A DNA stretch of 56,003 bases from Clostridia bacterium. GTDB taxonomy: Bacteria > Bacillota > Clostridia > Christensenellales > Borkfalkiaceae. Below, in pieces: positions 30,272 through 52,111 of this stretch (position 1 is the stretch's first letter; each line of letters begins with the position of its first letter). The stretch is taken from positions 1 through 56,003 of the forward strand of contig JAQYLE010000027.1 of the NCBI GenBank assembly GCA_028720205.1, in the 5' to 3' direction. The notes beneath the pieces are model-generated. The model had not been told where the DNA came from. It did not search any database and saw only the letters and a program-made list of their open reading frames with translations. A program made the translations under genes and the position numbers.

Positions 30272-31222
30272 ATGAACAACAAAGTTACAATTATCGGCGT
30301 CGGATCGGTGGGCGCAACCATCGCCTACACTCTGGTGGCAAGCAGTTCGGTCTCTCAGATCGTTTTAATCGACGTTAATTCGGAAAAAGCGGAATCCGAA
30401 GCGATGGATATCAAACAGGCGACGCCGTTTTTATCGCCCGCCAACGTATACGAAGGAGATTATTCCGACGCGGCGGGTTCGGATATCGTAATCATTACGT
30501 CCGGCGTGGGCAGAAAGCCGGGGCAATCGCGCATCGACCTGGCGCAGACAAACGTGAACATCATAACGCAGATCGCGCCGGAAATCGTGAAATACGCGCC
30601 GGACGCCATTTATCTTATGGTGGCGAATCCGGTGGACGTGCTTACGTACGTATTCGAAAAAGTTTCGGGCTTGCCCAAGGGGCAGGTGATCGGCTCGGGA
30701 ACCATTTTAGATACGATCCGTCTTCGCACCCGCCTTTCCGAACTCTATTCCATCAATCAGAAGCAGGTGCACGCGTACGTTCTGGGCGAGCACGGCGACA
30801 GTTCGTTCGTGGCGTGGTCTACGGCGAATATCGCGGGAATTCCATTGAAAGAGTACAGCGACGCCATGGTGGATACCAAAGTACTGCCCATCACGCCGTA
30901 TTCGCGCGAGGAAGTGGAAGAATACGTAAGAAAATCGGGCGGTAAAATCATAGCGGGTAAGGGCGCCACCTTTTACGGCATTGCCGCTTCGGTTGCCAAT
31001 ATCGTAAATTCGCTGTATTCGGGCGTGGATTCCGTGCTTGCGCTCTCTTCGATGTTGCAGGGCGAATACGGCATTTCCGACGTTTGTTTAAGTATACCGT
31101 GCGTGCTGGGCAGGAAGGGCATTATTACCACGCTTACGCCCACGCTTTCGCCCGAAGAACTTTCTAAACTGCAATCGAGCGCGGAAATGTTAAAATCCGT
31201 TCTGGCTAAGGTACAATACTGA
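30272..31222 (+). CDS. LDH/MDH-family 2-hydroxyacid dehydrogenase; probable malate dehydrogenase in an LDH scaffold
   Basis: A 316-residue NAD-dependent dehydrogenase. [13 protein letters not shown] binds [15 protein letters not shown] holds the catalytic His174. The overall wording, including [19 protein letters not shown], is that of L-lactate dehydrogenase. However, the residue that decides substrate (Gln102 in LDH numbering, in NQKPGETR) is Arg81 here (GRKPGQSR), as in malate dehydrogenases, where Gln102Arg is known to switch LDH to oxaloacetate. Fumarase follows, and a fumarate reductase lies further on, so malate formation makes sense. Lactate activity cannot be excluded. The start at 30272 was chosen for AAAGGAAGAGG just upstream; the frame is open earlier but there it covers the promoter. 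Confidence 0.85.
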
Positions 31223-31299: not shown

Positions 31300-32676
31300 A
31301 TGGAATACCGCATTGAAAAAGACACGATGGGCGAAATGCGCGTACCGGCGGATAAATATTGGGGCGCGCAGACGGAAAGAAGCCACGAAAACTTTTTAAT
31401 CGGCGGCGAGGTAATGCCGCGCGAAATTACAAGAGCGTTCGGATATTTAAAAAAAGCGGCGGCAAACGCCAACTGCCGCCTCGGGGTTATATCGGAAGAA
31501 AAGCGCGCGGCGATCGCCGCGGCGTGCGATAAAGTGATTTCCGGAGAACTCAACGAACATTTTCCGCTTGTGGTGTGGCAGACGGGCAGCGGCACGCAAT
31601 CCAACATGAACGCCAACGAAGTCATCGCCAACTACGCCAACGAAAAGGCAGGCAAAAAACTGCTGCACCCCAACGACGACGTTAATAAATCGCAGAGTTC
31701 CAACGACACGTTTCCCACGGCGATGCACGTTGCCGCCGTGCTTGCCATAGACGAAAAACTTCTGCCTGCCATGGATACGCTGATCGCCACGTTCAAGCGG
31801 CTGGAAAAAGAAAACGAAGGCATTGTAAAAAGCGGCAGAACGCATTTGCAGGACGCCGTTCCCATCGCTTTTTCGCAGGAAATCAGCGGCTGGCGCAATA
31901 TGATAGAAAAAACGCGCGCGCAGATCTGCTTTACGATAGGCGGTCTTTCGGAACTTGCGCTCGGCGGCACGGCGGTAGGCACGGGGCTCAACGCGCCCGC
32001 AGGCTTTGCGGAAGCGGTAGCGGAGGAGATGTCCGCTTTAACGGGTAAAAAATTCGTTACGGCGGAAAACAAATTTCACGCGCTTACGGCGAAGGACGAT
32101 ATTACCTTTGCCCACGGCGCGCTGAAAGCGCTTGCCGCGGATCTGATGAAAATCGCCAACGACGTGCGCTGGCTTGCTTCAGGGCCGCGCGACGGGCTCG
32201 GCGAGATTTTCATTCCCGAAAACGAGCCGGGTTCTTCGATTATGCCGGGCAAGGTGAATCCCACGCAGTGCGAGGCGGTAACGATGGTGGCGGTGCAGGT
32301 AATGGGCAACGACGCGGCGATCGGCTTTGCCGCGTCGCAGGGGAATTTCGAACTCAACGTATTTATGCCGGTTATCGCGTATAACTTTCTGCAATCGGTA
32401 AATCTGCTTGCCGACTGCATCGTCTCGTTCGAAAAGAACTGCGTGCGCGGCATAAAGGCGAATAGGGAAAAAATGCGGCATAACCTGTATAATTCGCTGA
32501 TGCTGGTTACCGCGCTGAACCCGTATATCGGTTATGAGAACGCGGCGAAAACGGCGAAAAAGGCGTATAAAGAAAACATTTCGCTTAAAGAGGCGTGCGT
32601 TGCGCTCGGCTTTCTGACGGCGGAAAAATTCGACGAGGTGTTCCGCCCCGAAGATATGGCTTGCATCAAAAAATAA
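31300..32676 (+). CDS. fumC: Fumarate hydratase, class II
   Basis: Interconverts malate and fumarate without an Fe-S cluster. It has 458 residues, the standard FumC length. Family marks are [37 protein letters not shown] (the combination specific to fumarase rather than aspartase), and the signature [13 protein letters not shown] (about 311-323) with the catalytic serine. The start was placed at 31300 (ATGGAATAC), with AAGGAG 12 bases before it; 13 further codons upstream are open but have no ribosome site. It follows the dehydrogenase by 77 bases and precedes hdrB. Running towards fumarate it would feed the fumarate reductase encoded at 39.4-41.7 kb. Confidence 0.96.
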
Positions 32677-32771: not shown

Positions 32772-33593
32772 ATGGAAATTTGTTACTATCCCGGGTGCAC
32801 GCTGAAAACGCAGGCGAAGGAACTGGATAAAACCGCCCGCAGAGCCATGGCGGCGCTCGGCGTTACGATGAAAGAAATAGAAAATTGGCAATGTTGCGGC
32901 GCGGTGTATCCCTCGGCGAAGAGGGAAATTGCTTCGCGCCTTTCCGCCGTGCGCGCGTTACGGTACGCGGAAGAACACGGCGGGAAATTGCTTACGCTTT
33001 GTTCCGCCTGCCACAACGTAATCAAGCGGACGAACGAAGATATTAAAACGGACGAAAATTTTTCGCGCGCGGCAAACGCTTACCTTGGCTTCGAAACGCC
33101 GTATACGGGCGAAACGAAAGTAATTCATTATCTTGAATTTCTGCGCGACGAAATCGGTTTTGCCGCGATAAAAAGCAAGGTGAAAAAGCCGTTGAACAGA
33201 AAAATCGCGGCGTATTACGGGTGTCTTTTGTTGCGCCCTTCCAAAGTCATGGCGTTCGATAACCCCGAAAATCCTTCGATTTTCGAGGACTATATCCGCG
33301 CCCTCGGCGGCACGCCGGTAATTTATCCGTTCCGCAACGAGTGCTGCGGCGCGTACGTATCGGTGAAAAACCCCGGACTCACCGCGCAGAAGAGCAAAAA
33401 AATACTTCTTTCCGCGGCGGAGGCGGGCGCGTGCGAAATACTCACGGGGTGCCCGCTGTGCTATTACAATTTAAAAACGTACGGCGGCGACGTTATTCCC
33501 GTCACCGATTTTCCCGCGCTTTTGTGCGAGGCGCTGGGCGCGGCGGACGAAGAAAACGCAAATACCGCAGATAACGAAGGAGGCAGAGCATGA
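32772..33593 (+). CDS. hdrB: Heterodisulfide reductase subunit B-like protein (HdrB)
   Basis: A 273-residue protein with two complete CCG domains, the hallmark of HdrB: Cys9, Cys41-Cys42, Cys77 and Cys80 in the first (YYPGC, QCCG, CSACH), and Cys151, Cys191-Cys192, Cys227 and Cys230 in the second (YYGC, ECCG, GCPLC). In methanogen HdrB these bind two noncubane [4Fe-4S] clusters that split the CoM-S-S-CoB disulfide. In bacteria the natural acceptor is usually unknown. The C-terminal 20 residues are a loose acidic tail. Its stop overlaps the hdrC start (ATGA). First gene of the Hdr-Flx-Frd cluster. Confidence 0.93.
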   Translation: MEICYYPGCTLKTQAKELDKTARRAMAALGVTMKEIENWQCCGAVYPSAKREIASRLSAVRALRYAEEHGGKLLTLCSACHNVIKRTNEDIKTDENFSRAANAYLGFETPYTGETKVIHYLEFLRDEIGFAAIKSKVKKPLNRKIAAYYGCLLLRPSKVMAFDNPENPSIFEDYIRALGGTPVIYPFRNECCGAYVSVKNPGLTAQKSKKILLSAAEAGACEILTGCPLCYYNLKTYGGDVIPVTDFPALLCEALGAADEENANTADNEGGRA

Positions 33594-33964
33594 CGCGTGA
33601 AGAACGGCTGGAAAATCTGCGCGAATTAAGCGGTACAAACGTTTACGCGTGCATGAAGTGCGGCAAATGTTCGGGGCGTTGCCCCGCAAACGTGCAGCCG
33701 CACCGCTTTGTATCGTTGCTATCGCGCGGCAAGTTGGAAGAACTTTTAAACAGCGAAACGGCGTGGGATTGTCTTACCTGCTATGCGTGCGCGGAACGTT
33801 GCCCGCGCGGCGTTTCGCCCGTATCCGTGGTGGAAGCGGTTAGAAAAACGCAGGTGTGCATGAAGGAAAACAACAAAATTTCCGCAGAAGAAATTCCGCC
33901 TGCGATAGGCGAACATACGCCGCAGCAACTTCTTATGTCCGTTTTCAGAAAGTGCAACGGGTAA
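33590..33964 (+). CDS. hdrC: Heterodisulfide reductase subunit C-like protein (HdrC)
   Basis: A 124-residue two-cluster ferredoxin-like protein. The motifs CMKCGKCSGRCP (Cys21, 24, 27, 31) and CLTCYACAERCP (Cys61, 64, 67, 71) bind two [4Fe-4S] clusters. Size, spacing and the flanking helices (RGKLEELLNSETAWD) match HdrC, which passes electrons from HdrA to HdrB. It begins in an ATGA overlap with hdrB behind GGAGGCAGAG, and hdrA follows after 66 bases. It is soluble; no membrane helix is present, as expected for the cytoplasmic HdrABC type rather than HdrDE. Confidence 0.94.
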   Translation: MTREERLENLRELSGTNVYACMKCGKCSGRCPANVQPHRFVSLLSRGKLEELLNSETAWDCLTCYACAERCPRGVSPVSVVEAVRKTQVCMKENNKISAEEIPPAIGEHTPQQLLMSVFRKCNG

Positions 33965-34030
33965 CGATACGATTGGTAGCGGAAACAGAATAATCAAAGC
34001 GCAAAATAAACGAAAGAACGGGTAGAAAAA

Positions 34031-36022
34031 ATGCAAAGAATAGGAGTATTTATCTGTCATTGCGGAACGAATATCGCCGCGACGGTGGACGTGAAAAAAG
34101 TGGTGGAAACCGTCCGCGCGGAAGAGGGCGTGGTATATGCCGCCGATTATCCGTATATGTGTTCGGAAAACGGCCAGCAGATGATTCAATCGGCGATAAA
34201 AGAGCAGAATCTTACGGGAATCGTCATCGGTTCGTGCTCGCCGCGCATGCACGAAGCCACGTTTAAAAAAGCGGCGGCTCAGGCGGGGCTGAACGCGTAC
34301 ATGGTAGAAGTGGCGAACATTCGCGAACACTGTTCGTGGATTCATAAAGATATCGGAGAAGCCACAAAAAAAGCGGTGATTTTAGTGCGCGCGGCAATAG
34401 CCAAAGTAAAACTCAACGCGCCGCTTCAACAGGGCACCAGCCCCGTAACCAAGCGCGCGCTCGTCATCGGCGGCGGTATCGCGGGCATTCAGGCGGCGCT
34501 CGATATTGCCGAAGCGGGCTTCCCCGTAGATATCGTGGAAAAAAATCCCACGATAGGCGGGCGCATGGCGCAACTCGATAAAACCTTTCCCACGCTGGAT
34601 TGTTCCGCGTGTATTTTAACGCCGAAAATGGTGGATTGCGCCCAGAGCGACAAGATAGAGATTTTATCGTATTCCGAAGTAGAGGCGGTGAAAGGCTTCG
34701 TGGGCAACTTCACCGTAAAAATCAGAAGAAAGGCGCGCTACGTAGACGAAACGAAATGCACGGGTTGCAAAGCGTGTATGGAAAAATGTCCCTCTAAAAA
34801 AGGACTGAACGAATTCAACATGGGGCTGAACACGCGCACGGCGATTTATATTCCGTTTGCGCAGGCGATTCCCAACGTGGCGGTCATCGACCCCGCGCAG
34901 TGCATTAAATTAAAGACGGGCAAGTGCGGTATCTGTTCTGCGGTGTGCGGAGCGAAAGCCGTAGATTATACCATGCAGGATACGTTTATCGAACGGCAGT
35001 ACGGCGCCATCGTGGTGGCTACGGGCTTTAAGCCGATCGCCCTCGATAATTTCAACGAATATTCCTACGCTACCGAAAAGGACGTGATCACCTCGCTGGA
35101 ACTGGAACGGCTGATGAACGCCGCAGGACCTACGGGCGGCACGTTGCTTCGCCCTTCCGACGGCACGCACCCCAAGGTGATTACCTTTATTCAGTGCGTC
35201 GGCTCGCGCGATACTTCGGGTTGCGGAAAGCCGTACTGTTCTAAAATCTGCTGTATGTACACGGCGAAACACGCCATGCTTATCCGCGAAAAGTATCCGG
35301 ATACAGAGGTGCACGTTTTTTATATCGACGTAAGAACGCCGGGTAAGAATTACGACGAATTTTACCGCCGCGCGGTGGAAAGTTACGGCGTGGATTATAT
35401 CAAAGGCATGGTGGGCAAGGTATACGGCGAAAACGGCAAACTGATGGTGCAGGGCGAAAATCTCATCGACGGCGAACAGGTTACGATCGCTTCCGATCTG
35501 GTGGTGCTGGCAACGGCGATAGAACCCGAACCTTCGGTACGAAAAATCGCCACGTTGCTTACGGCAAGCATCGATACCAACAACTTCCTCACCGAATCGC
35601 ACGCAAAGTTGCGCCCCGTGGAAAGCCCTACGGCGGGCGTGTATCTGGCGGGCGTTTGTCAGGGGCCGAAAGATATTCCGGAAACGGTGTCGCAAGCCTC
35701 GGCATGCGCGGCGAAAGTGATAGGGCTGCTCGTTAAGAACGAACTGAAAACCAACCCGTGCGTGGCGGGCGCCAACGAAAGCATGTGTAACGGTTGCGGT
35801 CAGTGCGCCAACGTGTGCGCGTACGGAGCGATCACGTACGAAGAAAAGCAGTTCCGCCTCGGCGGCGGCAAAACGGAAACGCGGCGCGTGGCAAGCGTGA
35901 ACCCCGCGGTGTGTCAGGGTTGCGGAGCCTGCACGGTTACCTGCCCTTCGGGCGCGATGGATTTAAAAGGATTTTCAACGAAACAAATCATGTCGGAGGT
36001 GGAAAGCGTATGCAGAGCATAG
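34031..36022 (+). CDS. hdrA: Heterodisulfide reductase subunit A-like flavoprotein (HdrA), electron-bifurcating subunit
   Basis: A 663-residue soluble FAD/Fe-S protein of normal HdrA length. The N-terminal domain (about 1-135) starts RIGVFICHCGTN. The thioredoxin-reductase-like FAD domain starts at VIGGGIAGIQAALDIAEAGF, with IGGRMAQLDKTFPTLDCSACILTPKM carrying the HdrA-specific cluster. Inserted ferredoxin clusters are CTGCKACMEKCP and CGICSAVC. CVGSRDTSGCGKPYCSKICC is typical of the family. The C-terminal ferredoxin has CNGCGQCANVCAYG and CQGCGACTVTCPSG. In known HdrABC complexes its FAD splits electron pairs between ferredoxin and HdrB. The following mvhD-like gene overlaps its end by 13 bases. 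Confidence 0.95.
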   Translation: MQRIGVFICHCGTNIAATVDVKKVVETVRAEEGVVYAADYPYMCSENGQQMIQSAIKEQNLTGIVIGSCSPRMHEATFKKAAAQAGLNAYMVEVANIREHCSWIHKDIGEATKKAVILVRAAIAKVKLNAPLQQGTSPVTKRALVIGGGIAGIQAALDIAEAGFPVDIVEKNPTIGGRMAQLDKTFPTLDCSACILTPKMVDCAQSDKIEILSYSEVEAVKGFVGNFTVKIRRKARYVDETKCTGCKACMEKCPSKKGLNEFNMGLNTRTAIYIPFAQAIPNVAVIDPAQCIKLKTGKCGICSAVCGAKAVDYTMQDTFIERQYGAIVVATGFKPIALDNFNEYSYATEKDVITSLELERLMNAAGPTGGTLLRPSDGTHPKVITFIQCVGSRDTSGCGKPYCSKICCMYTAKHAMLIREKYPDTEVHVFYIDVRTPGKNYDEFYRRAVESYGVDYIKGMVGKVYGENGKLMVQGENLIDGEQVTIASDLVVLATAIEPEPSVRKIATLLTASIDTNNFLTESHAKLRPVESPTAGVYLAGVCQGPKDIPETVSQASACAAKVIGLLVKNELKTNPCVAGANESMCNGCGQCANVCAYGAITYEEKQFRLGGGKTETRRVASVNPAVCQGCGACTVTCPSGAMDLKGFSTKQIMSEVESVCRA

Positions 36023-36522
36023 AAAACGGCAATGCGTTAAACGGCGCAGGCACGCAGACGTTCGTGCCCAAAATCGTGGCGTTCTGCTGTAACTGGTGTT
36101 CGTATGCGGGCGCGGATCTGGCGGGTTCTTCGCGGCTTGCGTATCCCGCTTCGGTAAAGATTATCCGCGTGCCCTGTTCGTGCCGCGTGAACCCCACGTT
36201 TGTGTTAAAGGCGTTTCAGCAAGGGGCGGACGGCGTGATATTATGCGGTTGTCACCCCGGCGACTGTCATTACGTAACGGGCAATTATTATACCCGCCGC
36301 AGAATGGCGCTGTTATTTTCCTTCCTCGATTATCTGGGGATAGAGCGCGACAGAATGCGCGTGGAATGGGTGTCCGCCGCCGAAGGCGCGCGCTTTTCTC
36401 AGGTGATGAACGACTTCGTGAGTAAGGTGACGGCGCTCGGCGAAAACAGAAAAATCGCCGATATTCGTTGTAAAGGCGCGTCGGGCGGCGAGGACGTTGC
36501 GGGAGGAAATAACGATGACTGA
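36010..36522 (+). CDS. MvhD/FlxD-type [2Fe-2S] electron-transfer subunit
   Basis: A 170-residue protein of the MvhD (FrhD/FlpD) family, which passes electrons from an outside donor module to HdrA. The cysteine pattern is CCNWCSYAGAD (Cys26, 27, 30), then PCSCRV (56, 58), then LCGCHPGDCHY (79, 81, 86), all typical of the family. A 20-residue N-terminal piece without features precedes them. The start at 36010 was chosen because GGAGGTGG lies nine bases before the ATG. It overlaps hdrA by 13 bases and the next gene by 8, so the subunits are probably made in step. In Flx-Hdr systems this gene is flxD. Confidence 0.93.
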   Translation: MQSIENGNALNGAGTQTFVPKIVAFCCNWCSYAGADLAGSSRLAYPASVKIIRVPCSCRVNPTFVLKAFQQGADGVILCGCHPGDCHYVTGNYYTRRRMALLFSFLDYLGIERDRMRVEWVSAAEGARFSQVMNDFVSKVTALGENRKIADIRCKGASGGEDVAGGNNDD

Positions 36523-37471
36523 TTTATATAACGCTTGTTTATCCCGCGCGCAGGAACTTTTAAAAAGCGGCGAAGTTTCGCGCGTCGTCGGCTGGAAGAA
36601 AGGCGAATTCTGCTTTGACGTATCGCCCGCGTATTTCGAAAGCGCGGAAGAATTAAACGAATTTACTTACGATTATTTCTGCGGCGCAAATCTTTCGAAA
36701 TATCTGGTGCAGATTGCCAAAAAAGAGGGGAAGAGCGCGGTGTTTTTAAAGCCGTGCGATACCTATTCGTTTAACGAACTTGTAAAAGAGCACCGCGTTC
36801 CGCGCGAAAAAATTCACGTCATCGCCGTGGAATGCCGCGGCAAAGCGGATATAAAAAAAGCGGAGAGCGTTGCGGGCGAGGGAGTACTTGGCATTAACGA
36901 AACCGACGACGTAAACTTGCTGGAAATTAAAACGCGCTCGGGCAAAACGCAGACGGAACGGCGTAACATTCTGCTTACAAAATGTCTTTCGTGCAAAGGC
37001 AAAAAGCACGTTGCCGCCGATGAAAAAATCATTTTAAAGGAGCCGATCGAAACGGGAAGCGACCGATTTGCGGGCGTGGAGAAGTTGGAAGCGATGACGG
37101 CGGAACAGCGCTTTGCGTTCTGGAAAAGCGAACTTTCGCGCTGTATCCGTTGCAACGCCTGCCGCAACGTATGCCCCGCGTGCACTTGCGTGAAATGCGT
37201 GTTCGATAATCCCGAATCGGGCGTTGCGGCGAAAGCGAACGATACCTCGTTCGAAGAGCAACTTTTCCACGTCATCCGCGCGTTTCACGTAGCGGGCAGG
37301 TGCACCGATTGCGGCGAGTGTACGAGGGTGTGCCCGCAGGGCATTCCGCTGCATCTTTTAAACCGTAAATTTATTAAGGATATCGATACGAAATACGGCG
37401 AATTTCAGGCGGGAGAAGAAGCGGAAGGCAAAACGCCGCTCACATCGTTCAAGGAGGACGACGGGCAATGA
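36515..37471 (+). CDS. Flx-type Fe-S electron-transfer protein (FrhB/FdhB-like N-terminus, dicluster ferredoxin C-terminus)
   Basis: A 318-residue soluble Fe-S protein. The first 200 residues resemble the beta-subunit family of F420 hydrogenase and formate dehydrogenase (AVFLKPCDTYSFNELVKEH near 75-93, ILLTKCLSCKGKK near 152-164). Two ferredoxin clusters follow: CIRCNACRNVCP (Cys210, 213, 216, 220) and CTDCGECTRVCP (Cys263, 266, 269, 273). Extra cysteines 223, 225 and 228 lie between. In FlxABCD-HdrABC loci, Fe-S proteins of this kind (FlxB/FlxC) link the NADH-oxidising FlxA to FlxD. The ATG at 36515 stands behind GGGAGGAAA and overlaps the mvhD-like gene by 8 bases. Which Flx letter it corresponds to is not certain. 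Confidence 0.85.
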   Translation: MTDLYNACLSRAQELLKSGEVSRVVGWKKGEFCFDVSPAYFESAEELNEFTYDYFCGANLSKYLVQIAKKEGKSAVFLKPCDTYSFNELVKEHRVPREKIHVIAVECRGKADIKKAESVAGEGVLGINETDDVNLLEIKTRSGKTQTERRNILLTKCLSCKGKKHVAADEKIILKEPIETGSDRFAGVEKLEAMTAEQRFAFWKSELSRCIRCNACRNVCPACTCVKCVFDNPESGVAAKANDTSFEEQLFHVIRAFHVAGRCTDCGECTRVCPQGIPLHLLNRKFIKDIDTKYGEFQAGEEAEGKTPLTSFKEDDGQ

Positions 37472-38517
37472 AAAAGATAGATACGGAACATCTTGCGGCG
37501 CTGTATGCCGCAATCGGCGAAAAATATCCGCTGTATCTGCCCGTAAAGCAGGGCGCGGCGGTTAATTTTGCGCCGTACACGGCGGACGCGGAAGTTGATT
37601 TAACGCAGTTAAAAACGGTGAAATCGCCCAAAGATCTGTTCTTTCCGCAAAGCGAAGAGATGATGCGTTTTGAAAAAAAAGACGGCATGTGGCAGATATA
37701 CGATCTGGCGAAAGAGCAGAACCCGTTCGTGCTGTTCGGCGTGCGCGCCTGCGATTATAAGGCGTTCGAAGTGTTGGATAACGTGTTTTTGAGCGACCCG
37801 AAAGATACCTTTTACGCCCACCGCAGAGAGGCGGCGATAATAGTAACTCTGGCATGTTTTTCGCCGAAAGACACGTGTTTCTGCAACGTTTTTGCAATCG
37901 ACGCCGCCAATCCGCAGGGAGATATCGCGGCGTACCTTAGCGGAACCTGCCTGTATTTGCAGGCGCAAACGGAAAAGGGCAAGGCGCTTCTCGATTCGTT
38001 AGGAAATATAAACGGCGCGCTTTGCGAGGCGGACGATACCGACGAAACCGCGCTTGGCGGAATAAGGCAAAAAGCGAAAGCGGCGTTTGAACAACTCCCG
38101 TTCGCCTCGCTTGATTTAAGCGCTTTTCACGGCGATATGAAAGAGACGTTTGCCGATGAAAAATGGGAAAAACTTTCACAGGCGTGTCTGGGTTGCGGCG
38201 CGTGCACGTTCGTCTGCCCCACCTGTCAGTGTTTCGATATCCGCGATTTCAAGGCGAAAGACGGCGTAATACGTTTCCGTTGCTGGGATTCGTGCATGTA
38301 TTTCGATTTTACGCAGATGGCGGGCGGCAATCCGCGCACCACGCAAACGCAGCGGTTCCGTCAGCGGTTTATGCACAAACTCGTGTACTATCCCAAGCGT
38401 TACGGCGGCACGTACTCGTGCGTGGGGTGCGGCAGATGCGTGGAAAAGTGCCCGCAGCATTTAAATATCGTTAAAGTGATAAAAGAATTTTCGAAAGGCG
38501 GAAAGGAGGAAAAATAA
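37468..38517 (+). CDS. Flx-type Fe-S electron-transfer protein (AsrA/HydB-like, 4Fe-4S dicluster)
   Basis: A 349-residue soluble protein of the family containing anaerobic sulfite reductase subunit A, sulfhydrogenase beta subunit and FlxB-type proteins. The N-terminal domain contains FPQSEEMMRF and FVLFGVRACDYKAFEVLDNVF (about 90-111), typical of the family. The C-terminal ferredoxin part has CLGCGACTFVCPTCQC (from Cys240) and CVGCGRCVEKCP (from about Cys318). Between them lies RFRCWDSCMYFDFTQMAGG, also characteristic. It starts in an ATGA overlap with the previous gene, and the FlxA-like gene starts one base after its stop. No sulfite reductase catalytic subunit or hydrogenase gene is present, which leaves an electron-relay role. 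Confidence 0.88.
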   Translation: MKKIDTEHLAALYAAIGEKYPLYLPVKQGAAVNFAPYTADAEVDLTQLKTVKSPKDLFFPQSEEMMRFEKKDGMWQIYDLAKEQNPFVLFGVRACDYKAFEVLDNVFLSDPKDTFYAHRREAAIIVTLACFSPKDTCFCNVFAIDAANPQGDIAAYLSGTCLYLQAQTEKGKALLDSLGNINGALCEADDTDETALGGIRQKAKAAFEQLPFASLDLSAFHGDMKETFADEKWEKLSQACLGCGACTFVCPTCQCFDIRDFKAKDGVIRFRCWDSCMYFDFTQMAGGNPRTTQTQRFRQRFMHKLVYYPKRYGGTYSCVGCGRCVEKCPQHLNIVKVIKEFSKGGKEEK

Positions 38518-38518
38518 C

Positions 38519-39349
38519 ATGGCGCAGGAAAATCTCGTTCCCGTTGTGGGCATGGTAACGGATATCAGAACGGATACTCCGGACGTAAAAACTTTCCGCG
38601 TTGTTTCGCCGGACGGAAAAAAGCCGTTCGAACATCTGCCGGGGCAATGCGCTATGGTTTCTATTCCCGGCGCCGGGGAGTGTATGTTTTCCATAACGTC
38701 CTCGCCCACAAATAAAGAGTATATGGAGTTTTCCATTAAGCGTTGCGGTTGCGTAACGCAGGCGATTCACGATTTATCGGCGGGCGATACGATAACGGTG
38801 CGCGGACCGTACGGCAGACCGTTTCCCGTGGAAGGCGAAGATTTCAAAGGCAAAAATCTGCTGTTCATCGCGGGCGGCATAGGGCTTGCGCCGCTCCGCA
38901 GCGTAATCGATTACGTGCGGGCGAAACGTGAAAATTACGGCGAAGTTACCATTATATACGGCGCGCGCAGCGCGGACGATCTGGTAGATATACAGGAAAT
39001 AGAAAACGAGTGGAAGAAAGAAAAAGGCTTTCACGTATACCTTACCGTCGACAGGCCGCAGGAAGGCTGGACGGGGCACGTGGGGTTTGTGCCTGCGTAC
39101 GTAAAAGAACTTTCGGTGAACGCAAACGCTACGGCGGTGCTGTGCGGACCTCCTATCATGATTAAATTCACGCTTGCCGAACTTCTGGAAGAGGGATTTA
39201 AAAAAGACCGCGTTTACACCACGCTGGAAATGCGTATGAAATGCGGCATAGGAAAATGCGGCAGGTGCAACGTCGGCGATAAATACGTCTGCAAAGACGG
39301 CCCCGTGTTCCGCATGGACGAGTTGGACGAACTACCGGACGAGTATTAA
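38519..39349 (+). CDS. FlxA-like FAD/NAD(P)H oxidoreductase with [2Fe-2S] site
   Basis: A 276-residue reductase of the ferredoxin-NADP reductase superfamily, in the AsrB/HydG/PyrK branch. The FAD-binding beta barrel shows MFSITSSP (about 60-67). The nicotinamide half shows FIAGGIGLAPLRS (about 117-129) and CGPPIM (about 209-214). A C-terminal [2Fe-2S] site is formed by Cys242, 247, 250 and 258 (CGIGKCGRC, then C). It is the likely entry point for electrons from NADH or NADPH into the Hdr complex. GGAGGAAAAATAAC precedes the ATG. I cannot tell NADH from NADPH preference by eye. Confidence 0.9.
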   Translation: MAQENLVPVVGMVTDIRTDTPDVKTFRVVSPDGKKPFEHLPGQCAMVSIPGAGECMFSITSSPTNKEYMEFSIKRCGCVTQAIHDLSAGDTITVRGPYGRPFPVEGEDFKGKNLLFIAGGIGLAPLRSVIDYVRAKRENYGEVTIIYGARSADDLVDIQEIENEWKKEKGFHVYLTVDRPQEGWTGHVGFVPAYVKELSVNANATAVLCGPPIMIKFTLAELLEEGFKKDRVYTTLEMRMKCGIGKCGRCNVGDKYVCKDGPVFRMDELDELPDEY

Positions 39350-39402
39350 GCGATAAGTCGGCGCAACGTAAAGCGCAACGAACGAAAATGAGGTGAAACA
39401 CA

Positions 39403-40077
39403 ATGGAAAAAACGGTAAACGTGTGGTTATTCGGTAAGAAATACGCTGTACCCGAAAGCCTTACCATAATGAAAGCGATGGAATACGCGGGGTATCGTCT
39501 GGTGCGCGGGTGCGGTTGCAGAAACGGATTCTGCGGCGCGTGCGCGTGTTTCTATCGCATTGCGGGGAAGCAGGAATTAAAAACCTGCCTTGCCTGTCAG
39601 ACGCAGGTGGAAGAGGGCATGTTTGTGGCGACTCTGCCGTTCTTCCCGCTGGTAAAGCAAGTGTACGACATCGAAAAAATCAAACCCACGCAGCAGATCA
39701 TGATGCAGTTGTATCCCGAAATTTACGCCTGTATCGGCTGTAACGCCTGCACGAAGAGTTGCACGCAGGGCTTAAACGTAATGCAGTACATCGCGTACGC
39801 TCAGCGCGGCGAATACGAAAAATGCGCGGAAGAAAGTTTCGATTGCGTTATGTGCGGCGCGTGCTCTTCGCGTTGTCCCGCGGGGATTTCTCATCCGCAG
39901 GTGGCGCTTCTGGCGCGCAGGCTTACGGGAAAATATTTAACGCCGGAAAGCGAACATTTACTCCGCCGCGTAAAAGAGGTGGAAGAGGGGAAATTCGACG
40001 ACGCGATCGAGGCGTTAAAAGAAAAGAGCCTGGACGAACTGAAAAAACTTTACAACGAGCGCGTGATTGAAAAATAA
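39403..40077 (+). CDS. Fumarate reductase / succinate dehydrogenase iron-sulfur subunit, soluble TfrB/FrdB-like
   Basis: A 224-residue Fe-S protein. The N-terminal plant-type ferredoxin fold carries an SdhB/FrdB-like [2Fe-2S] site (Cys37, 39, 44, 47, 49 with Cys62, 65; GCGCRNGFCGAC). The C-terminal half has CIGCNACTKSC (110-120) and CVMCGACSSRCP (148-159). Classical FrdB has one [4Fe-4S] and one [3Fe-4S] site that also contacts quinone; here both motifs look like full [4Fe-4S] sites. TfrB of methanogen thiol:fumarate reductase has an added HdrB-like CCG domain, which is missing here, but a free HdrB is encoded in the same cluster. No membrane-anchor genes follow, so the enzyme should be cytoplasmic. 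Confidence 0.87.
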   Translation: MEKTVNVWLFGKKYAVPESLTIMKAMEYAGYRLVRGCGCRNGFCGACACFYRIAGKQELKTCLACQTQVEEGMFVATLPFFPLVKQVYDIEKIKPTQQIMMQLYPEIYACIGCNACTKSCTQGLNVMQYIAYAQRGEYEKCAEESFDCVMCGACSSRCPAGISHPQVALLARRLTGKYLTPESEHLLRRVKEVEEGKFDDAIEALKEKSLDELKKLYNERVIEK

Positions 40078-40106
40078 GGCGTAAGAGAAAAAAGGAGAAA
40101 GGAAGT

Positions 40107-41711
40107 ATGTACGCATACGACGAAGAACAAGTAAAATCTTTGCGCAAAGTGGAAGAAACGCGCGCGGAAAGAACGGGCAAGGAATTGCGTCGGCTTACCG
40201 CCGAGGAAAAGGACGCGCTTCTTTCTTCGTATCATCCCGATTATATCCGTTCCGCGTATACGAATTTACAGGTAGGCGCAAACGCCGGCGCGCCCGTATT
40301 GAAAGAACTTGCGTCGCTTTTGCAGGGCACGCCCCGCGTATTAAACGAGCGGGTGAATTTAGATAAAATCGATTACGACGTCGACGTTCTGGTCATCGGC
40401 GGCGGCGGAGCGGGCGCTTCGGCGGCGATAGAAGCAAAGCGCGCGGGCGCAGACGTGTTAATGGTTACCAAACTGCGCTTAGGCGACGCCAACACCACTA
40501 TGGCGGAAGGCGGAATTCAGGCTGCGGATAAAGAAAACGATTCCCCCGCGATACATTATCTGGACGCGCTTGGCGGCGGTCATTTCAAAAATAAAAAAGA
40601 ACTGCTTGAAAAACTGGTTACCGAGGCGCCCGAAGCGATTTTATGGCTCAATTCGCTGGGCGTGATGTTCGATAAAGATAAAAACGGCAATATGATTACC
40701 ACGCACGGCGGCGGCACTTCCCGTAAACGGATGCACGCCTGCCGCGATTATTCCGGCTCGGAAATCATGCGCGTTCTGCGCGACGAAACGTATAATCTCG
40801 GTATTCCCGTGGTGGACTTCACTTCCGCGATAGAACTTATCAAAGATACCGAGGGTAAAGTTGCGGGCGCCGTGCTTAAAAATATGGAGACGGGCGAAAT
40901 ATTAGTGGCGCGCGCAAAATGCGTGGTGCTCGCCACGGGCGGCGCGGGAAGATTGCATTATCAGGGCTTTCCCACGTCAAACCATTACGGCGCCACGGCG
41001 GACGGACTTGTGCTGGCGTATCGCGCGGGGGCGAAACTGCTCTATCCCGAAACGCTGCAATATCACCCCACGGGCGTAGCCGCTCCTACGCAGATTTACG
41101 GCGCGCTGGTCACCGAAAAGGTGCGCTCTCTGGGCGCGCAACTCGTCGGCAAAGACGGCGTGGCGTTCGTCAATCCGCTGGAAACGCGCGACGTAACCGC
41201 CTCCGCCATTATCCGCGAATGCAAGGAACGCAAAAACGGCTTGAAAACAGCCGACGGCGAGGGCGTGTGGCTGGATACGCCGATGATCGATATCATTCAC
41301 GGCGAGGGCACGATAGAAAAACGCATTCCAGCCATGCTCCGTATGTTCGGCAAGTACGGGCTGGATATAAGAAAAACGCCTATATTGGTATATCCTACGC
41401 TGCATTATCAGAACGGCGGCGTGGATATAAACGCCTCTGCGGAAAGCGGCGTGAAGAATCTGTTCGTGGCGGGCGAAGCGGCGGGCGGTATTCACGGCAC
41501 AAACCGCCTGATGGGCAATTCGCTGTTAGATATCATCGTGTTCGGCAGAACGGCGGGCAAGAACGCGGCGGCGCGCGCCAAAGAAACCGCGGTAAAACCG
41601 CTTACGCTGTCGTTTGTGGAACAATACGCAGAGGAAATGCAAAAGGCGGGGTGCGAATCGGGCGAACTTTCGCCCAGACTTCTTCCCGATTACAGAAGAA
41701 AAGATATGTAA
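40107..41711 (+). CDS. Fumarate reductase flavoprotein subunit (FrdA/TfrA/SdhA family)
   Basis: A 534-residue FAD protein of the succinate dehydrogenase/fumarate reductase family. An unusual hydrophilic N-terminal extension of about 90 residues precedes the FAD motif (VLVIGGGGAGASAA, about 94-107). Substrate-site residues are present: QYHPTG (His320), THGGGTSRKRMH, LHYQNGGV and GTNRLMGNSLLD with Arg467, the likely proton donor. The histidine that binds FAD covalently in FrdA/SdhA is Asn129 here (ANTTMAEGG), so FAD should be non-covalent, as in soluble fumarate reductases and NadB. L-aspartate oxidase was considered, but the adjacent Fe-S subunit and fumC favour fumarate reductase. GGAGAAAGGAAG precedes the ATG. 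Confidence 0.88.
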   Translation: MYAYDEEQVKSLRKVEETRAERTGKELRRLTAEEKDALLSSYHPDYIRSAYTNLQVGANAGAPVLKELASLLQGTPRVLNERVNLDKIDYDVDVLVIGGGGAGASAAIEAKRAGADVLMVTKLRLGDANTTMAEGGIQAADKENDSPAIHYLDALGGGHFKNKKELLEKLVTEAPEAILWLNSLGVMFDKDKNGNMITTHGGGTSRKRMHACRDYSGSEIMRVLRDETYNLGIPVVDFTSAIELIKDTEGKVAGAVLKNMETGEILVARAKCVVLATGGAGRLHYQGFPTSNHYGATADGLVLAYRAGAKLLYPETLQYHPTGVAAPTQIYGALVTEKVRSLGAQLVGKDGVAFVNPLETRDVTASAIIRECKERKNGLKTADGEGVWLDTPMIDIIHGEGTIEKRIPAMLRMFGKYGLDIRKTPILVYPTLHYQNGGVDINASAESGVKNLFVAGEAAGGIHGTNRLMGNSLLDIIVFGRTAGKNAAARAKETAVKPLTLSFVEQYAEEMQKAGCESGELSPRLLPDYRRKDM

Positions 41712-41781: not shown

Positions 41782-42117
41782 ATGGCGGAAATTTTTGAAA
41801 TAGGAATGGTGCTTTGTTTCGGCGCTTCGTGGCCGTTCAACGTTATCCGCGCGTATAAAGCGCGCACGGCGAAGGGAACGAGTCTTCTTTTCACGTTGCT
41901 GATTGAAATCGGCTATATCAGCGCGATTATCGGTAAATTTATATTGCTTGCACAGCAGGGCGGCGCGTATTGGACGCCTGCACGAGCGATTGCCTTTGCG
42001 TTTTATTGGATCAATCTTGCCATGGTTACGGCAGGGCTAGTCATATACTTCCGCAATAAAAAGTTAGACGCAAAAGCGGAAAAAGCAGAAAAAACCGCCG
42101 AAGAGCAAGCGGCGTAA
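41782..42117 (+). CDS. Small three-helix membrane protein, PQ-loop/SemiSWEET-like
   Basis: A 111-residue membrane protein with three helices (about 5-22, 36-58, 68-92) and a charged alanine-rich tail. The first helix and loop, ASWPFNVIRAYKARTAKGTSLLFT, follow the PQ-loop pattern (proline in helix one, basic loop, Ser-Leu entering helix two). However, the usual Gln after Pro is Phe, so the assignment is by resemblance only. SemiSWEET proteins of this size dimerise to carry sugars. A small transporter at the end of a fumarate-reductase cluster could also move an acid, but nothing in the sequence shows that. The start at 41782 was chosen for AAAGAGGTGAA nine bases upstream. Confidence 0.65.
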   Translation: MAEIFEIGMVLCFGASWPFNVIRAYKARTAKGTSLLFTLLIEIGYISAIIGKFILLAQQGGAYWTPARAIAFAFYWINLAMVTAGLVIYFRNKKLDAKAEKAEKTAEEQAA

Positions 42118-42242: not shown

Positions 42243-43052
42243 TCAAAGCGTCAAAAATCTGTTTCGCTTGAAATACTTTCTCCACCAATCGGACAGCGTT
42301 TTTTGTACCTTTTTCCGCACTTTGTCTAACGCCCAATGAATCTGCCGTACCCAATGGTATCTGTCCGCTACGATTTTCGCGTTGGGGAACAGCCACGAAA
42401 GAGAACGGTAATCTTCCCACATATCCATTACAAGCACACGCACCTTTTCCCTTTCCGCGCGCGGAAAGCGCAGAAAATAAGAAATCAGGTAGGTTGTATA
42501 TCGGTTCGGCAGAATATCAATCACCTTTCTTTCCTTTATATTCGTTAAAATTGCCTGATATTTTTCTCCGTTCGTATTACCCTTGAATTCGTCTATTCCC
42601 AAAACGACGGGTAAACTTGCAGGCGGTGTTACGGCAACGTATTCGAAGATTCTGAATACCGAAGCGGATGATATGCCGAAACGTTTCCCTACGTCTTTAA
42701 AAGAGATCTTTTCTCTTAAAGCATTCAGAACGGAGGCATAAACTCTGCCTGTAAAATGTCGGTACCGTGGCAGAAAGTCGTACTTTTCAAAGAATCGTTT
42801 TCCGCAGGCTTTACAAATGTAACGGCGTTTATGTAACAGTAAAAAGGTTTCTTTCCCTTGAAAGGGTATATCCCGAATCTTTTGTATTCGGTAATCGTGG
42901 ACGTATTTTGTGGGTCGTCCGCAATAAGGACAAACTTGCTCTTTGGGGAGAGTGGATATATAAATTTGAATAAAAGAAGAATTATTTTCGATTTTATCCA
43001 CGAAAACGTTTGCAATTCCGAGTAAAGATGTGGTAAGATTTTGTTGAAACAT
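42243..43052 (-). pseudogene. ISL3-family transposase, C-terminally shortened
   Basis: 269 residues, while ISL3 transposases usually have about 400-430. The N-terminal zinc ribbon is present (CPYCG, then CKACGKRF; about 41-84), followed by a helix-turn-helix (ISFKDVGKRFGISSASVFRIFEY). The first DDE aspartate is in VVLGIDEFKG (near 153) and the second in VLVMDMWEDYRS (near 209), followed by ADRYHWVRQIHWALDKVRK. The frame stops soon after (KRNRFLTL), so the region with the third catalytic residue is missing. Only about 100 bases remain before the inverted repeat and they do not encode the missing part in any frame. The element therefore probably cannot move by itself. Confidence 0.85.
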
Positions 43053-43453: not shown

Positions 43454-45175
43454 ATGAAAAAACCGATAAAAACGTTAAGCGCAGTTATCAGCCTTTTTGT
43501 GTTGGGTTCGTCTGTGGCGGGGTGCAGCAGAGGCGGAGACGAGGTGAAAATAAATCACGATATGTCGCAACTCTATGTAGGATTCGGCTTTTCAGACGAT
43601 TCTTTTCTTCCGCAATTGGCGAAAGAATTTGAGGAGGCATATAAAGACGTTGAATTCGAACCGGGGAAAAAGGGCGTACAGGTTTTTATCAATTCCAACG
43701 GTAAATTCTCCGAAACGGGCACAATATATTCTAATTTATCCTCTTATCAGGAGGAAATCGTTATCGCCGAGCAGTTGGAGTTAAACCGACTCGTCAAGCA
43801 GAATCTTGTTGCCGAAATTACCGACGCGGTAAAAACGCCGATTTCATCGAACGCCTATTCGGAGAAAGTCGACTTGGGCGAAACGCAGTCTATCGAGGAC
43901 AAAATGGCAGATGCGTATAAAGATTACTACGGCAAAGACGGGAAATATTATGCTGTTCCGTATACCGAAAGTACGATAGGGATCATTTACGACGTTGATC
44001 TGTTCGATAAAGAAGGCTTGTATTTTGCAAGAGCGGGAAAGGGAAATTCCGACGGCTTTGTTGAAGAAGAATACACCGTCGACGATTTATCGGCGGGGCC
44101 GGACGGAGAGTACGGCACTTACGACGACGGCTTGCCGGCAACGTACGACGATTATTTCAGACTCTGTAAATACATGCAGCTTGAATTTGCGATTACGCCC
44201 GTAATCTGGGGCGGAAAGGTACAGACGTATCCTGTAACGTTTATGACTTCGCTTTATGCCGATTACGAAGGCGAGCGGCAAATGCGTTTAAATTACGATT
44301 TTAACGGCACGGCGAACGATCTTGTGTGCGTGGAAAACGGGAAAGTGCAGTATAACGCGGACGGTACGCTTAAAACCTATTCTACGGCGATATCCGCTTC
44401 TAACGGCTACGAGCTTTATAAACAAAGCGGCAGATATTATGCGTTGTCGTTTTTAGAGCGCCTGGTTAATTCAGAATATTATAATTCCGGCGATTGTTTC
44501 GGGGGCACGGTGGATCATCTTACCGCGCAGGGTAAATTCCTGTTGAGTAAGGCGAAAAACGAACCGACGGCAATGCTTATCGACGGAACGTGGTGGCAGT
44601 CGGAAGCGAGAAAGAGCAACGTATTCAGCGATATGGCGGAAAAGTACGGAAGCCAATATGCGCTTGAAAACAGGAATTTTGCTTTTATGCCTTTGCCTAA
44701 GGCAACAAGCGACAAAGTAGGGGAAAAACAGACGACGATGATGTTCATCGATTCTATGGCGTTCGTCAACGGAAACGTCAAGGCGGAGAAAAAAGCGCTT
44801 TGCGAGCTGTTTCTGAAGTATATGCACACCAGGCAATCCCTGCTTCAATATATACAGGTTACGGGGCAGATGAAGCCGTTTGAAATCGAGCTTACACAGG
44901 AAGAGTACAACGGGCTGACAGGCTTCGGAAAATCGAGCTATAATATTCATAAATACACAAATCTTTTGCTTCCGTTATCCTACAACGACGTATTCTGTAC
45001 GGCCAAGTATCTGTTTTCACCCAACGGAATGCAGGTATGGCAGTCTGCGAACGGCGAGATTGTAACTTCGATGATCAAAAACGACGGGATCACCGCCGAG
45101 CAACATTTTCTCGATATTATAAATTATCGTTCGGCTGTAAAATGGGACGAATATTTCAAGGGAGTGTGCTATTGA
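43454..45175 (+). CDS. Carbohydrate ABC transporter substrate-binding lipoprotein (family 1)
   Basis: A 573-residue lipid-anchored binding protein. The signal peptide ends in a lipobox VAGC (Cys24). The mature protein follows the family 1 pattern: SFLPQLAKEFEEAYKDVEFEP near the start, YYAVPYTESTIGIIYDVDLFDKEGL (about 159-183) as the central hinge, MLIDGTWWQSEARK and FAFMPLPKAT later. It is longer than a typical maltose-type binding protein (about 420), as often seen for oligosaccharide binders of gut Clostridia. Two permeases follow directly. AGTACGGAGGGC precedes the ATG. The sugar bound is unknown. Confidence 0.92.
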   Translation: MKKPIKTLSAVISLFVLGSSVAGCSRGGDEVKINHDMSQLYVGFGFSDDSFLPQLAKEFEEAYKDVEFEPGKKGVQVFINSNGKFSETGTIYSNLSSYQEEIVIAEQLELNRLVKQNLVAEITDAVKTPISSNAYSEKVDLGETQSIEDKMADAYKDYYGKDGKYYAVPYTESTIGIIYDVDLFDKEGLYFARAGKGNSDGFVEEEYTVDDLSAGPDGEYGTYDDGLPATYDDYFRLCKYMQLEFAITPVIWGGKVQTYPVTFMTSLYADYEGERQMRLNYDFNGTANDLVCVENGKVQYNADGTLKTYSTAISASNGYELYKQSGRYYALSFLERLVNSEYYNSGDCFGGTVDHLTAQGKFLLSKAKNEPTAMLIDGTWWQSEARKSNVFSDMAEKYGSQYALENRNFAFMPLPKATSDKVGEKQTTMMFIDSMAFVNGNVKAEKKALCELFLKYMHTRQSLLQYIQVTGQMKPFEIELTQEEYNGLTGFGKSSYNIHKYTNLLLPLSYNDVFCTAKYLFSPNGMQVWQSANGEIVTSMIKNDGITAEQHFLDIINYRSAVKWDEYFKGVCY

Positions 45176-45176
45176 A

Positions 45177-46202: not shown

Positions 46203-46205
46203 GCT

Positions 46206-47081: not shown

Positions 47082-47092
47082 GGAGGGTTTTT

Positions 47093-50170: not shown

Positions 50171-50210
50171 AAATGGGGCAGGAACAGATTTTTTGCAGGA
50201 GGGTAAAGCT

Positions 50211-52100: not shown

Positions 52101-52111
52101 TGGAGGAAACA

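What the first reader, a model, noticed from the sequence alone, without database searches (positions are those of the whole stretch)
32772..41711. Flx-Hdr electron-bifurcating complex fused in one cluster with a soluble fumarate reductase
Nine consecutive genes, several overlapping by a few bases, encode HdrB, HdrC, HdrA, an MvhD/FlxD protein, two Fe-S relay proteins, a FlxA-like NAD(P)H reductase, a fumarate reductase Fe-S subunit and its flavoprotein. HdrABC with MvhD or Flx modules is known to split electron pairs at the HdrA flavin, sending one to ferredoxin and one to a disulfide. Here the high-potential acceptor module appears to be fumarate reductase itself. Fumarate (about +30 mV) is a much better acceptor than a heterodisulfide, so NADH-driven ferredoxin reduction coupled to succinate formation would be favourable. 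No hydrogenase, DsrC-like protein or membrane anchor is present. I am not aware of a characterised NADH:ferredoxin/fumarate bifurcating complex of this make-up, but novelty cannot be tested here.
Basis: partly seen in the sequence, partly recalled or inferred. Interest (0 to 1): 0.92.

Follow-up and report, generated by a model that had tools for sequence, protein, structure and literature searches.

The report
Bifurcating fumarate reductase operon, gut Clostridia
A nine-gene operon in an uncultured gut bacterium most likely builds an enzyme that uses NADH to turn fumarate into succinate while saving part of the released energy as reduced ferredoxin, an idea already in print but not yet tested by enzymology as far as I could find.

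Summary
In detail: nine intact, tightly packed genes at 32772-41711 (hdrBCA, flxDCBA, frdBA), with malate dehydrogenase and fumarase just upstream. The proposal is not new: a fumarase/Flx-Hdr/fumarate reductase 'succinate operon' in Pseudoclostridium thermosuccinogenes was described in 2020, citing a 2019 preprint on bifurcation; a related Hdr-Flx/Tfr model exists for tubeworm symbionts.

What I add. In the organism's order 38 of 297 genomes carry this FrdA, and all 32 relatives with uncut loci keep the nine-gene order. FlxC occurs in 36 genomes, all FrdA-positive. DsrC is absent from 38 of 38. Elsewhere in the phylum the same FrdBA core sits beside other electron-input modules. HdrB tracks FrdA there: the 27 best HdrB matches among 155 other genomes are all FrdA-positive, though 11 of 38 FrdA-positive genomes lack that HdrB. 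HdrA identity does not separate them. This fits HdrB handing electrons to FrdB.

Bifurcation is untested, and FrdBA also occurs with no Hdr nearby. Verdict: real, interpretation largely supported, new member of a known, proposed kind.

The parts
30272..31222 (+). Malate dehydrogenase (LDH/MDH family; Arg, R81, at the substrate-specificity place)
   Evidence: NCBIfam: above the cut-off of two L-lactate dehydrogenase models and of one malate dehydrogenase model; the Arg is kept in 26 of 26 aligned copies, window included; that Arg there marks MDH is recalled knowledge.
31300..32676 (+). Fumarase (class II type, by eye)
   Evidence: ORF; a 76-84% identical gene beside the cluster in most relatives of the order. 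No family scan of this protein was completed.
32772..33593 (+). HdrB, two CCG domains, ten cluster cysteines; FrdA-tracking subtype
   Evidence: (ten Cys in 33 of 33)
33590..33964 (+). HdrC, two [4Fe-4S] motifs
   Evidence: eight Cys in 36 of 36
34031..36022 (+). HdrA, FAD plus several [4Fe-4S]; presumed bifurcation site
   Evidence: E 1e-205 to 5odc_A; C389, C403, C407, C408 kept in 33 of 33
36010..36522 (+). FlxD (MvhD/FlpD family)
   Evidence: PF02662, 185.4 bits
36515..37471 (+). FlxC-like Fe-S relay (dicluster)
   Evidence: found in 36 of 297 genomes of the order at E 1e-20, all FrdA-positive
37468..38517 (+). FlxB-like Fe-S relay (Fer4_22; related to sulfhydrogenase beta and AsrA)
38519..39349 (+). 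FlxA, NAD(P)H-oxidising FAD/[2Fe-2S] subunit
39403..40077 (+). FrdB: [2Fe-2S] plus two [4Fe-4S] motifs; no CCG domain
   Evidence: ligand Cys kept in 149-150 of 150 copies; model pLDDT 89.6
40107..41711 (+). FrdA: fumarate reductase flavoprotein with a ~90-residue N-terminal extension, short C end, and no His at the covalent-FAD place
   Evidence: Foldseek best match E. coli FrdA 1kf6_A, E 1.2e-25, from a model of mean pLDDT 74.6
41782..42117 (+). Small membrane-protein-like ORF, PQ-loop-like by eye; possible counterpart of the 'hypothetical protein, potentially a succinic acid transporter' of the P. thermosuccinogenes operon
   Evidence: no Pfam family above its cut-off; homologues after frdA in part of the relatives

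Best explanation
The nine proteins form one soluble NAD(P)H-dependent, ferredoxin-reducing fumarate reductase. FlxA takes a hydride from NAD(P)H; FlxB, FlxC and FlxD carry the electrons to the HdrA FAD, which splits each pair. The low-potential electron leaves through HdrA Fe-S domains to ferredoxin. The high-potential electron runs HdrA -> HdrC -> HdrB -> FrdB -> FrdA and reduces fumarate. HdrB, a disulfide reductase elsewhere, here acts as a wire into FrdB, much as the related CCG protein SdhE in E-type complex II and the HdrB-like domain of TfrB are thought to do (recalled). Expected: 2 NADH + fumarate + oxidised ferredoxin (2 e-) -> 2 NAD+ + succinate + reduced ferredoxin. In this genome reduced ferredoxin would be re-oxidised by [FeFe] hydrogenase (no Rnf found), so succinate formation would let two NADH be disposed of per fumarate. 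Shown: gene content, site conservation, conserved linkage, no DsrC and Rnf match, HdrB-FrdA association. Inferred: complex formation, electron path, bifurcation, NADH rather than NADPH.
For: Gene order kept in 32 of 32 uncut relatives in the order and in 57 of 57 uncut loci among the best 80 of a second collection, one of them with hdrA in two pieces (the two sets share some contigs). FrdA in 38 and FlxC in 36 of 297 genomes, all 36 among the 38. DsrC 0 of 38. HdrB subtype: of 155 non-window phylum genomes with an HdrB match the 27 best are all FrdA-positive and none of 122 FrdA-negative ones reach that score; by family 10 of 13 against 0 of 45 (FrdA list). HdrA identity to the window is alike in both groups (about 50-58% against 54-60%). 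HdrC-HdrB-FrdB-FrdA loci without HdrA or Flx within the fetched stretch exist (L249, L251, L252, L263), pointing to an HdrB-FrdB contact; these four genomes also have a second, other-type HdrB beside Flx-HdrA. FrdA substrate-site residues kept in 156-157 of 157. Exergonic: -48.8 kJ/mol with -320/-420/+33 mV, -17.9 with -280/-500/+33 mV (-320 and +33 mV are quoted, the others recalled). The P. thermosuccinogenes operon rises about four-fold under CO2 limitation, not significantly for all its genes (PMC7282089, passages).
Against: I found no biochemistry for this enzyme. FrdBA of the same family also occurs without Hdr nearby: L246-L248 come from genomes with no FlxC (E 1e-10) or HdrB (E 1e-25) match, and L227 and L240 have multihaem cytochromes. 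11 of 38 FrdA-positive phylum genomes lack the FrdA-tracking HdrB: 6 have only another HdrB, 5 no HdrB match; two of the 11 (G550, G426) are cut by a contig end at the place in question. Of 12 FrdA-positive genomes whose frdBA lies apart from hdrB, 7 have the tracking HdrB and 5 do not. HdrB keeps all ten cysteines, so disulfide chemistry is not excluded. The own genome has no Rnf, so the gain from reduced ferredoxin is indirect. The FrdB model has no strong structural match to SdhB. The score limit was set on the ranking; the last FrdA-positive (178.8 bits) and the first negative (174.0) lie close.
Confidence: 0.7

Rival explanations
1. Non-bifurcating NADH:fumarate oxidoreductase: the Flx-Hdr-Frd proteins form a complex, but HdrA passes both electrons to fumarate, without net ferredoxin reduction.
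For: FrdBA takes several donors in other lineages; the own genome lacks Rnf to use reduced ferredoxin.
Against: HdrA is full length and aligns nearly end to end with HdrA of a bifurcating complex, with its cluster cysteines and the Lys aligned to K409 of 5odc_A (that the solved complex bifurcates and the role of that Lys are recalled). [FeFe] hydrogenases in 38 of 38 genomes give reduced ferredoxin a use.
Confidence: 0.14
2. Two enzymes in one operon: Flx-Hdr reduces an unknown disulfide or thiol carrier, and FrdAB is reduced by that carrier or by another donor (thiol:fumarate reductase-like).
For: HdrB keeps all ten CCG cysteines; Flx-Hdr interacts with DsrC in Desulfovibrio vulgaris (stated in PMC10504309, passage); in part of the FrdA-positive phylum genomes Flx-Hdr lies apart from frdBA, and 5 of 12 such genomes with an HdrB match have the other HdrB subtype.
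Against: DsrC 0 of 38; 7 of those 12 genomes carry the FrdA-tracking HdrB although frdBA lies elsewhere; HdrCB-FrdBA loci without HdrA exist; FrdB has no CCG domain.
Confidence: 0.11
3. The complex runs in reverse: reduced ferredoxin and succinate as donors drive NAD+ reduction (confurcation).
For: HdrABC reactions are in principle reversible (recalled).
Against: FrdA lacks the covalent-FAD His (N in 155 of 157, His in 2), which in E. coli FrdA is needed for succinate oxidation (recalled); malate dehydrogenase and fumarase, pyruvate carboxylase or malic enzyme neighbours (by eye) fit the reductive branch.
Confidence: 0.05

Closest known systems
'Succinate operon' of Pseudoclostridium thermosuccinogenes (CDQ83_RS03365-03315)
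   Same: Fumarase, seven Flx-Hdr genes by locus-tag steps, two fumarate reductase genes, then a hypothetical protein; [quoted passage not shown]
   Different: Its sequences could not be fetched, so orthology is inferred from the stated content and order. It has Rnf and Ech; the window's genome has no Rnf match.
FlxABCD-HdrABC of Desulfovibrio vulgaris
   Same: Same seven-subunit make-up (names from the papers seen; no sequence comparison).
   Different: Interacts with DsrC (PMC10504309, passage); here no DsrC, and frdBA in the operon. FrdA-negative Flx-Hdr in the phylum has another HdrB subtype.
Hdr-Flx/TfrAB/Kor clusters of tubeworm symbionts and Thioflavicoccus
   Same: Fumarate reductase interspersed with flx-hdr; direct electron transfer proposed (PMC6315080; PMC11636981; passages).
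   Different: TfrAB with korABCD and other rTCA genes; not compared by sequence here.
Thiol:fumarate reductase TfrAB of methanogens
   Same: TfrA is the best NCBIfam match of FrdA (341.9 bits).
   Different: Below the curated cut-off (718); FrdB has no CCG domain.
E-type SdhABE / 8-methylmenaquinol:fumarate reductase
   Same: A ten-cysteine CCG subunit with an SdhB whose pattern implies a second [4Fe-4S] (PMC2680327, passage); HdrB scores 136.1 bits to the SdhE model.
   Different: All models below cut-off; here the CCG protein is HdrB encoded with HdrA and Flx.
Five-subunit soluble NADH-fumarate reductase of Hydrogenobacter thermophilus (recalled)
   Same: Soluble and NADH-dependent (recalled).
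   Different: Genes scattered in the genome (recalled); not compared here.

Membership tests
Flx-Hdr (FlxABCD-HdrABC) | HdrA with FAD and Fe-S domains, HdrB with CCG motifs, HdrC dicluster, FlxD/MvhD, two Fe-S relays, FAD/NAD(P)H subunit, clustered | tested here: met
Flx-Hdr (FlxABCD-HdrABC) | DsrC-type partner in the genome (known for D. vulgaris) | tested here: not met
   PF04358 in 0 of 38 genomes; control rings in E. coli
P. thermosuccinogenes-type fumarate reductase/Flx-Hdr operon | fumarase, seven Flx-Hdr genes, two frd genes, small hypothetical protein, in that order | tested here: met
   window order against the order stated in PMC7282089; no sequence comparison was possible
P. thermosuccinogenes-type fumarate reductase/Flx-Hdr operon | NADH oxidation coupled to ferredoxin and fumarate reduction | not testable with these tools
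   needs enzymology; an assumption in the passages read
Thiol:fumarate reductase (TfrAB) | TfrB carries a CCG (HdrB-like) domain (recalled; the TfrB model also matches HdrB) | tested here: not met
   FrdB 224 aa, no PF02754 match
Thiol:fumarate reductase (TfrAB) | TfrA model score at or above cut-off | tested here: not met
   341.9 against 718 bits
8-methylmenaquinol:fumarate reductase (SdhABE) | model scores at or above cut-off | tested here: not met
   HdrB 136.1 against 500, FrdA 226.9 against 1100 bits
Fumarate reductase flavoprotein | His, Thr-Glu, Arg, His, Arg of the dicarboxylate site (roles recalled from E. coli FrdA) | tested here: met
   H320, T336, E337, R361, H433, R467 in 156-157 of 157
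Covalent-FAD SdhA/FrdA | His that binds FAD (place judged by eye from the motif) | tested here: not met
   N129 in 155, His in 2 of 157
Flavin-based electron bifurcation by HdrA | HdrA FAD domain and cluster cysteines present | tested here: met
   alignment with 5odc_A; Cys kept in 33 of 33
Flavin-based electron bifurcation by HdrA | coupled reduction of a low- and a high-potential acceptor | not testable with these tools
   needs enzymology

The most novel reading that the evidence does not exclude
Bacteria possess a distinct HdrB subfamily that has given up disulfide reduction and serves as a dedicated electron wire into a modular FrdBA core. The core is plugged into different electron-input modules (Flx-Hdr, a larger HdrA/Nfn-like assembly, HdrCB alone, NapC-type cytochromes). 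Where HdrA is present, fumarate is a general high-potential acceptor for flavin-based bifurcation in fermenting gut Clostridia.
Probability: 0.55. Interest if true: 0.68.

Novelty: new member of a known kind. Interest (0 to 1): 0.5.

Why it matters
Succinate is an important fermentation product in animal guts. If its formation is tied to ferredoxin reduction, energy and hydrogen budgets of succinate-forming Clostridia need revising: each fumarate would dispose of two NADH and yield reduced ferredoxin. Two of the 57 are records of isolates (Blautia glucerasea, Porcincola intestinalis), so the question can be tested in named strains. The HdrB-FrdA association gives a sequence marker that may separate fumarate-directed from other Flx-Hdr clusters.

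Tried and rejected
In-frame TGA in HdrA (probable selenocysteine at the C194 place) as a marker for FrdA-negative Flx-Hdr: found in 14 of 20 loci of one batch and 4 of 20 of another, and in none of 110 FrdA-linked loci (some of them the same contigs). But FrdA-negative L302 has none, and L285, L289 and L300 from FrdA-positive genomes have it, so it is no clean marker. The N-terminal extension of FrdA as a docking domain for Hdr: rejected, since it is present in all module types (HPD motif in 156 of 157 rows, the other truncated). L239 as an exception to the HdrB rule: its genome G577 has a second HdrB (40%) just beyond the fetched stretch, so it counts for the rule but against it. FrdB as a clear SdhB fold: Foldseek gave only weak matches, among them HdrC 8rvu_C; left open. 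Rnf as general ferredoxin user: RnfC above cut-off in 18 of 38, Rnf-Nqr membrane subunits in 20 of 38, neither in the own genome. Nitrogenase as ferredoxin user: no match in the own genome.

The first ortholog extraction overran some stop codons and was redone with trimming. The contingency (23 of 28 FrdA-positive against 0 of 16 FrdA-negative genomes) rests on loci that I picked; replace it. I first wrote that 6 of 6 genomes with frdBA apart from Flx-Hdr have the tracking HdrB; the recount is 7 of 12. In searches of the held library (open-licence PMC papers only) I saw no paper on an HdrB subtype tracking fumarate reductase; of most listed papers I saw only the listing.


Full report
WHAT IS THERE. 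The window holds nine intact co-directional genes at 32772-41711: hdrB, hdrC, hdrA, flxD, flxC, flxB, flxA, frdB, frdA. Four of the eight junctions overlap and the others are 1 to 66 bases wide. Family scans support each name. Upstream lie a malate dehydrogenase with Arg at the substrate-specificity place (kept in 26 of 26 aligned copies) and a fumarase; downstream a small membrane-protein-like ORF without a Pfam family above cut-off. The locus therefore encodes a route from oxaloacetate to succinate plus a Flx-Hdr complex.

CONSERVATION. A search of 297 genomes of the window's order found FrdA orthologues (65-76% identity over nearly the whole length) in 37 besides the own genome; 20 further genomes have only distant homologues at the limit used, and scores drop from 754 to 169 bits between the two. 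I fetched all 37 loci. In 32 the contig does not end inside the cluster, and all 32 have the nine genes in the same order; 5 are cut. FlxC, searched in the same 297 genomes at E 1e-20, was found in 36, all among the 38 FrdA-positive ones; so in this order I found no such FlxC without this fumarate reductase. Some contigs of the two sets are the same. Record titles of the second set name mostly Clostridia (among them Lachnospiraceae and Oscillospiraceae), a few Spirochaetaceae, Treponema and Planctomycetaceae; the three of the latter put into the HdrB and HdrA trees fall inside the clade of window-type loci, which suggests transfer as a unit, or mis-binned contigs.

SITES. In the order, HdrB has its ten cluster cysteines in 33 of 33, HdrC its eight in 36 of 36, and HdrA C389, C403, C407 and C408 in 33 of 33 copies. 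HdrA aligns nearly end to end with the solved HdrA 5odc_A, including the Lys aligned to K409 (its role near the flavin is recalled). Over all loci held, FrdA keeps the dicarboxylate-site residues in 156-157 of 157 rows and has Asn in 155 and His in 2 where covalent-FAD enzymes have His; FrdB keeps one [2Fe-2S] and two [4Fe-4S] motifs in 149-150 of 150 rows (residue roles recalled; rows from overlapping sets). FrdA's model (mean pLDDT 74.6, weak in the FAD loops) matches E. coli FrdA best. Its N-terminal extension of about 90 residues is present in all relatives that are not truncated, including those without Hdr. The FrdB model is good (pLDDT 89.6) but has only weak matches among solved structures.

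PARTNERS. DsrC is absent from 38 of 38 genomes. [FeFe] hydrogenase is present in 38 of 38, PFOR in the own genome. RnfC passes its cut-off in 18 of 38 and Rnf-Nqr membrane subunits in 20 of 38, neither in the own genome. The own genome has a single match of the SdhA/FrdA kind at E 1e-40.

A MODULAR FUMARATE REDUCTASE. In 398 genomes drawn across the phylum, 38 besides the own carry the same FrdA family at 50-64% identity, one of them twice. I fetched all 39 loci and compared their neighbourhoods with the window's genes. Four have frdBA followed by hdrBCA-flxDCBA, and L242 has hdrCBA-flxDCBA-frdBA. Eleven have hdrC, hdrB, hdrA, further HdrA-like matches, flxD and another Fe-S protein before frdBA (L234 and L237 are cut, L239 is arranged differently); in L228, the one read in detail, the HdrA-like matches are one 1070-residue protein with HdrA- and Nfn-like domains, and 2-oxoglutarate:ferredoxin oxidoreductase-like and succinyl-CoA synthetase-like genes follow (by eye). 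Four have hdrC-hdrB-frdB-frdA without hdrA or flx in the fetched stretch. In the other 19 no full Hdr set is near; four of these have under 3.2 kb upstream. Of those that I read, neighbours are pyruvate carboxylase (L246), malic enzyme and fumarase (L238, L253, L255), or cytochrome and membrane Fe-S proteins (L227, L240, L257) (mostly by eye; Pfam for L227 and L257). So FrdBA is a core that takes electrons from several modules.

HDRB TRACKS FRDA. Flx-Hdr clusters exist in the phylum without this FrdA. In the 16 FrdA-negative loci where I read an HdrB, HdrA is 54-60% identical to the window's but HdrB only 32-36%. Beside or alongside FrdA, HdrA is 50-58% and HdrB 41-51%, except L239 (33%) and the other-type HdrBs of genomes listed below. 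In a tree of 60 HdrBs, the 13 FrdA-negative ones together with L285 and L239 are split from the rest by a branch of 0.89 with full support. A search for HdrB in the 398 phylum genomes avoids my choice of loci: 155 non-window genomes match at E 1e-25; the 27 best are all FrdA-positive, in ten families; the other 128 hold 6 FrdA-positive and 122 FrdA-negative genomes. By family it is 10 of 13 against 0 of 45 (Fisher p 5e-9; not corrected for phylogeny, limit set on the ranking, last positive 178.8 and first negative 174.0 bits). Five further FrdA-positive genomes have no HdrB match, so 11 of 38 lack this HdrB; two of them are cut at the place in question. Of 12 FrdA-positive genomes whose frdBA lies apart from hdrB, 7 have it and 5 (G329, G335, G371, G376, G678) do not; in the latter frdBA has other neighbours, such as cytochromes (L227, L240) or an HdrC-like ORF (L243-L245). 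The four genomes with readable hdrCB-frdBA loci also carry a second, other-type HdrB in a Flx-Hdr cluster. Five columns separate the groups (45 against 14 rows, not all perfectly): T10, S78, V83, L154, E172 in window numbering; the first three lie close to cluster cysteines C9, C77 and C80. The simplest reading is that HdrB, more than HdrA, is the part adapted to fumarate reductase, that is, HdrB hands electrons to FrdB. HdrA was not searched in the same way, so that control rests on the loci read.

MECHANISM. I favour NAD(P)H -> FlxA -> FlxBCD -> HdrA, bifurcation to ferredoxin and to HdrC -> HdrB -> FrdB -> FrdA -> fumarate. This is exergonic at standard potentials (-48.8 kJ/mol) and at more cell-like ones (-17.9 kJ/mol). 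Content, conservation and association are shown; complex formation, path and bifurcation are inferred.

PRIOR ART. PMC7282089 (passages) describes a 'succinate operon' in P. thermosuccinogenes with fumarase, a Flx-Hdr complex, fumarate reductase and a hypothetical protein, assumes a link of fumarate reductase to ferredoxin reduction, and cites a 2019 preprint on it (reference seen, text not held). PMC6315080 (passages) and PMC11636981 (passages) propose transfer from Hdr-Flx to thiol:fumarate reductase in tubeworm symbionts. The concept is therefore known as a proposal. I saw no report of the purified activity in searches; most subscription papers and the preprint were out of reach.

VERDICT. 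The HdrB-FrdA association and the modularity of FrdBA are the parts that I have not seen in print in those searches.

Noticed in passing
42243-43052 (- strand): ISL3-family transposase gene (DDE_Tnp_ISL3 matched over 121 of 240 positions, so probably truncated) just downstream of the operon's small membrane ORF.
   Followed up: partly
L266-L278, L285, L289, L300, L301, L304 (HdrA): HdrA of these Flx-Hdr clusters outside the order has an in-frame TGA at the C194 place, probably selenocysteine; none of 110 FrdA-linked HdrAs has it.
   Followed up: partly
39511-39513 (FrdB C37): An extra cysteine two residues before the first [2Fe-2S] ligand is kept in 148 of 150 FrdBs; role unknown.
   Followed up: no
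L228:4174-8830: 2-oxoglutarate:ferredoxin oxidoreductase-like and succinyl-CoA synthetase-like genes (by eye) directly follow a FrdBA cluster with a large HdrA/Nfn-like protein, as if reduced ferredoxin were used for reductive carboxylation.
   Followed up: no
L227:6714-8016, L240:11835-12254: The same FrdBA family beside NapC/NrfH-type multihaem cytochromes (Pfam for L227, by eye for L240).
   Followed up: partly
43454-52747: Sugar-type ABC transporter genes (lipoprotein, two permeases) and large secreted or lipoprotein ORFs, named by eye.
   Followed up: no
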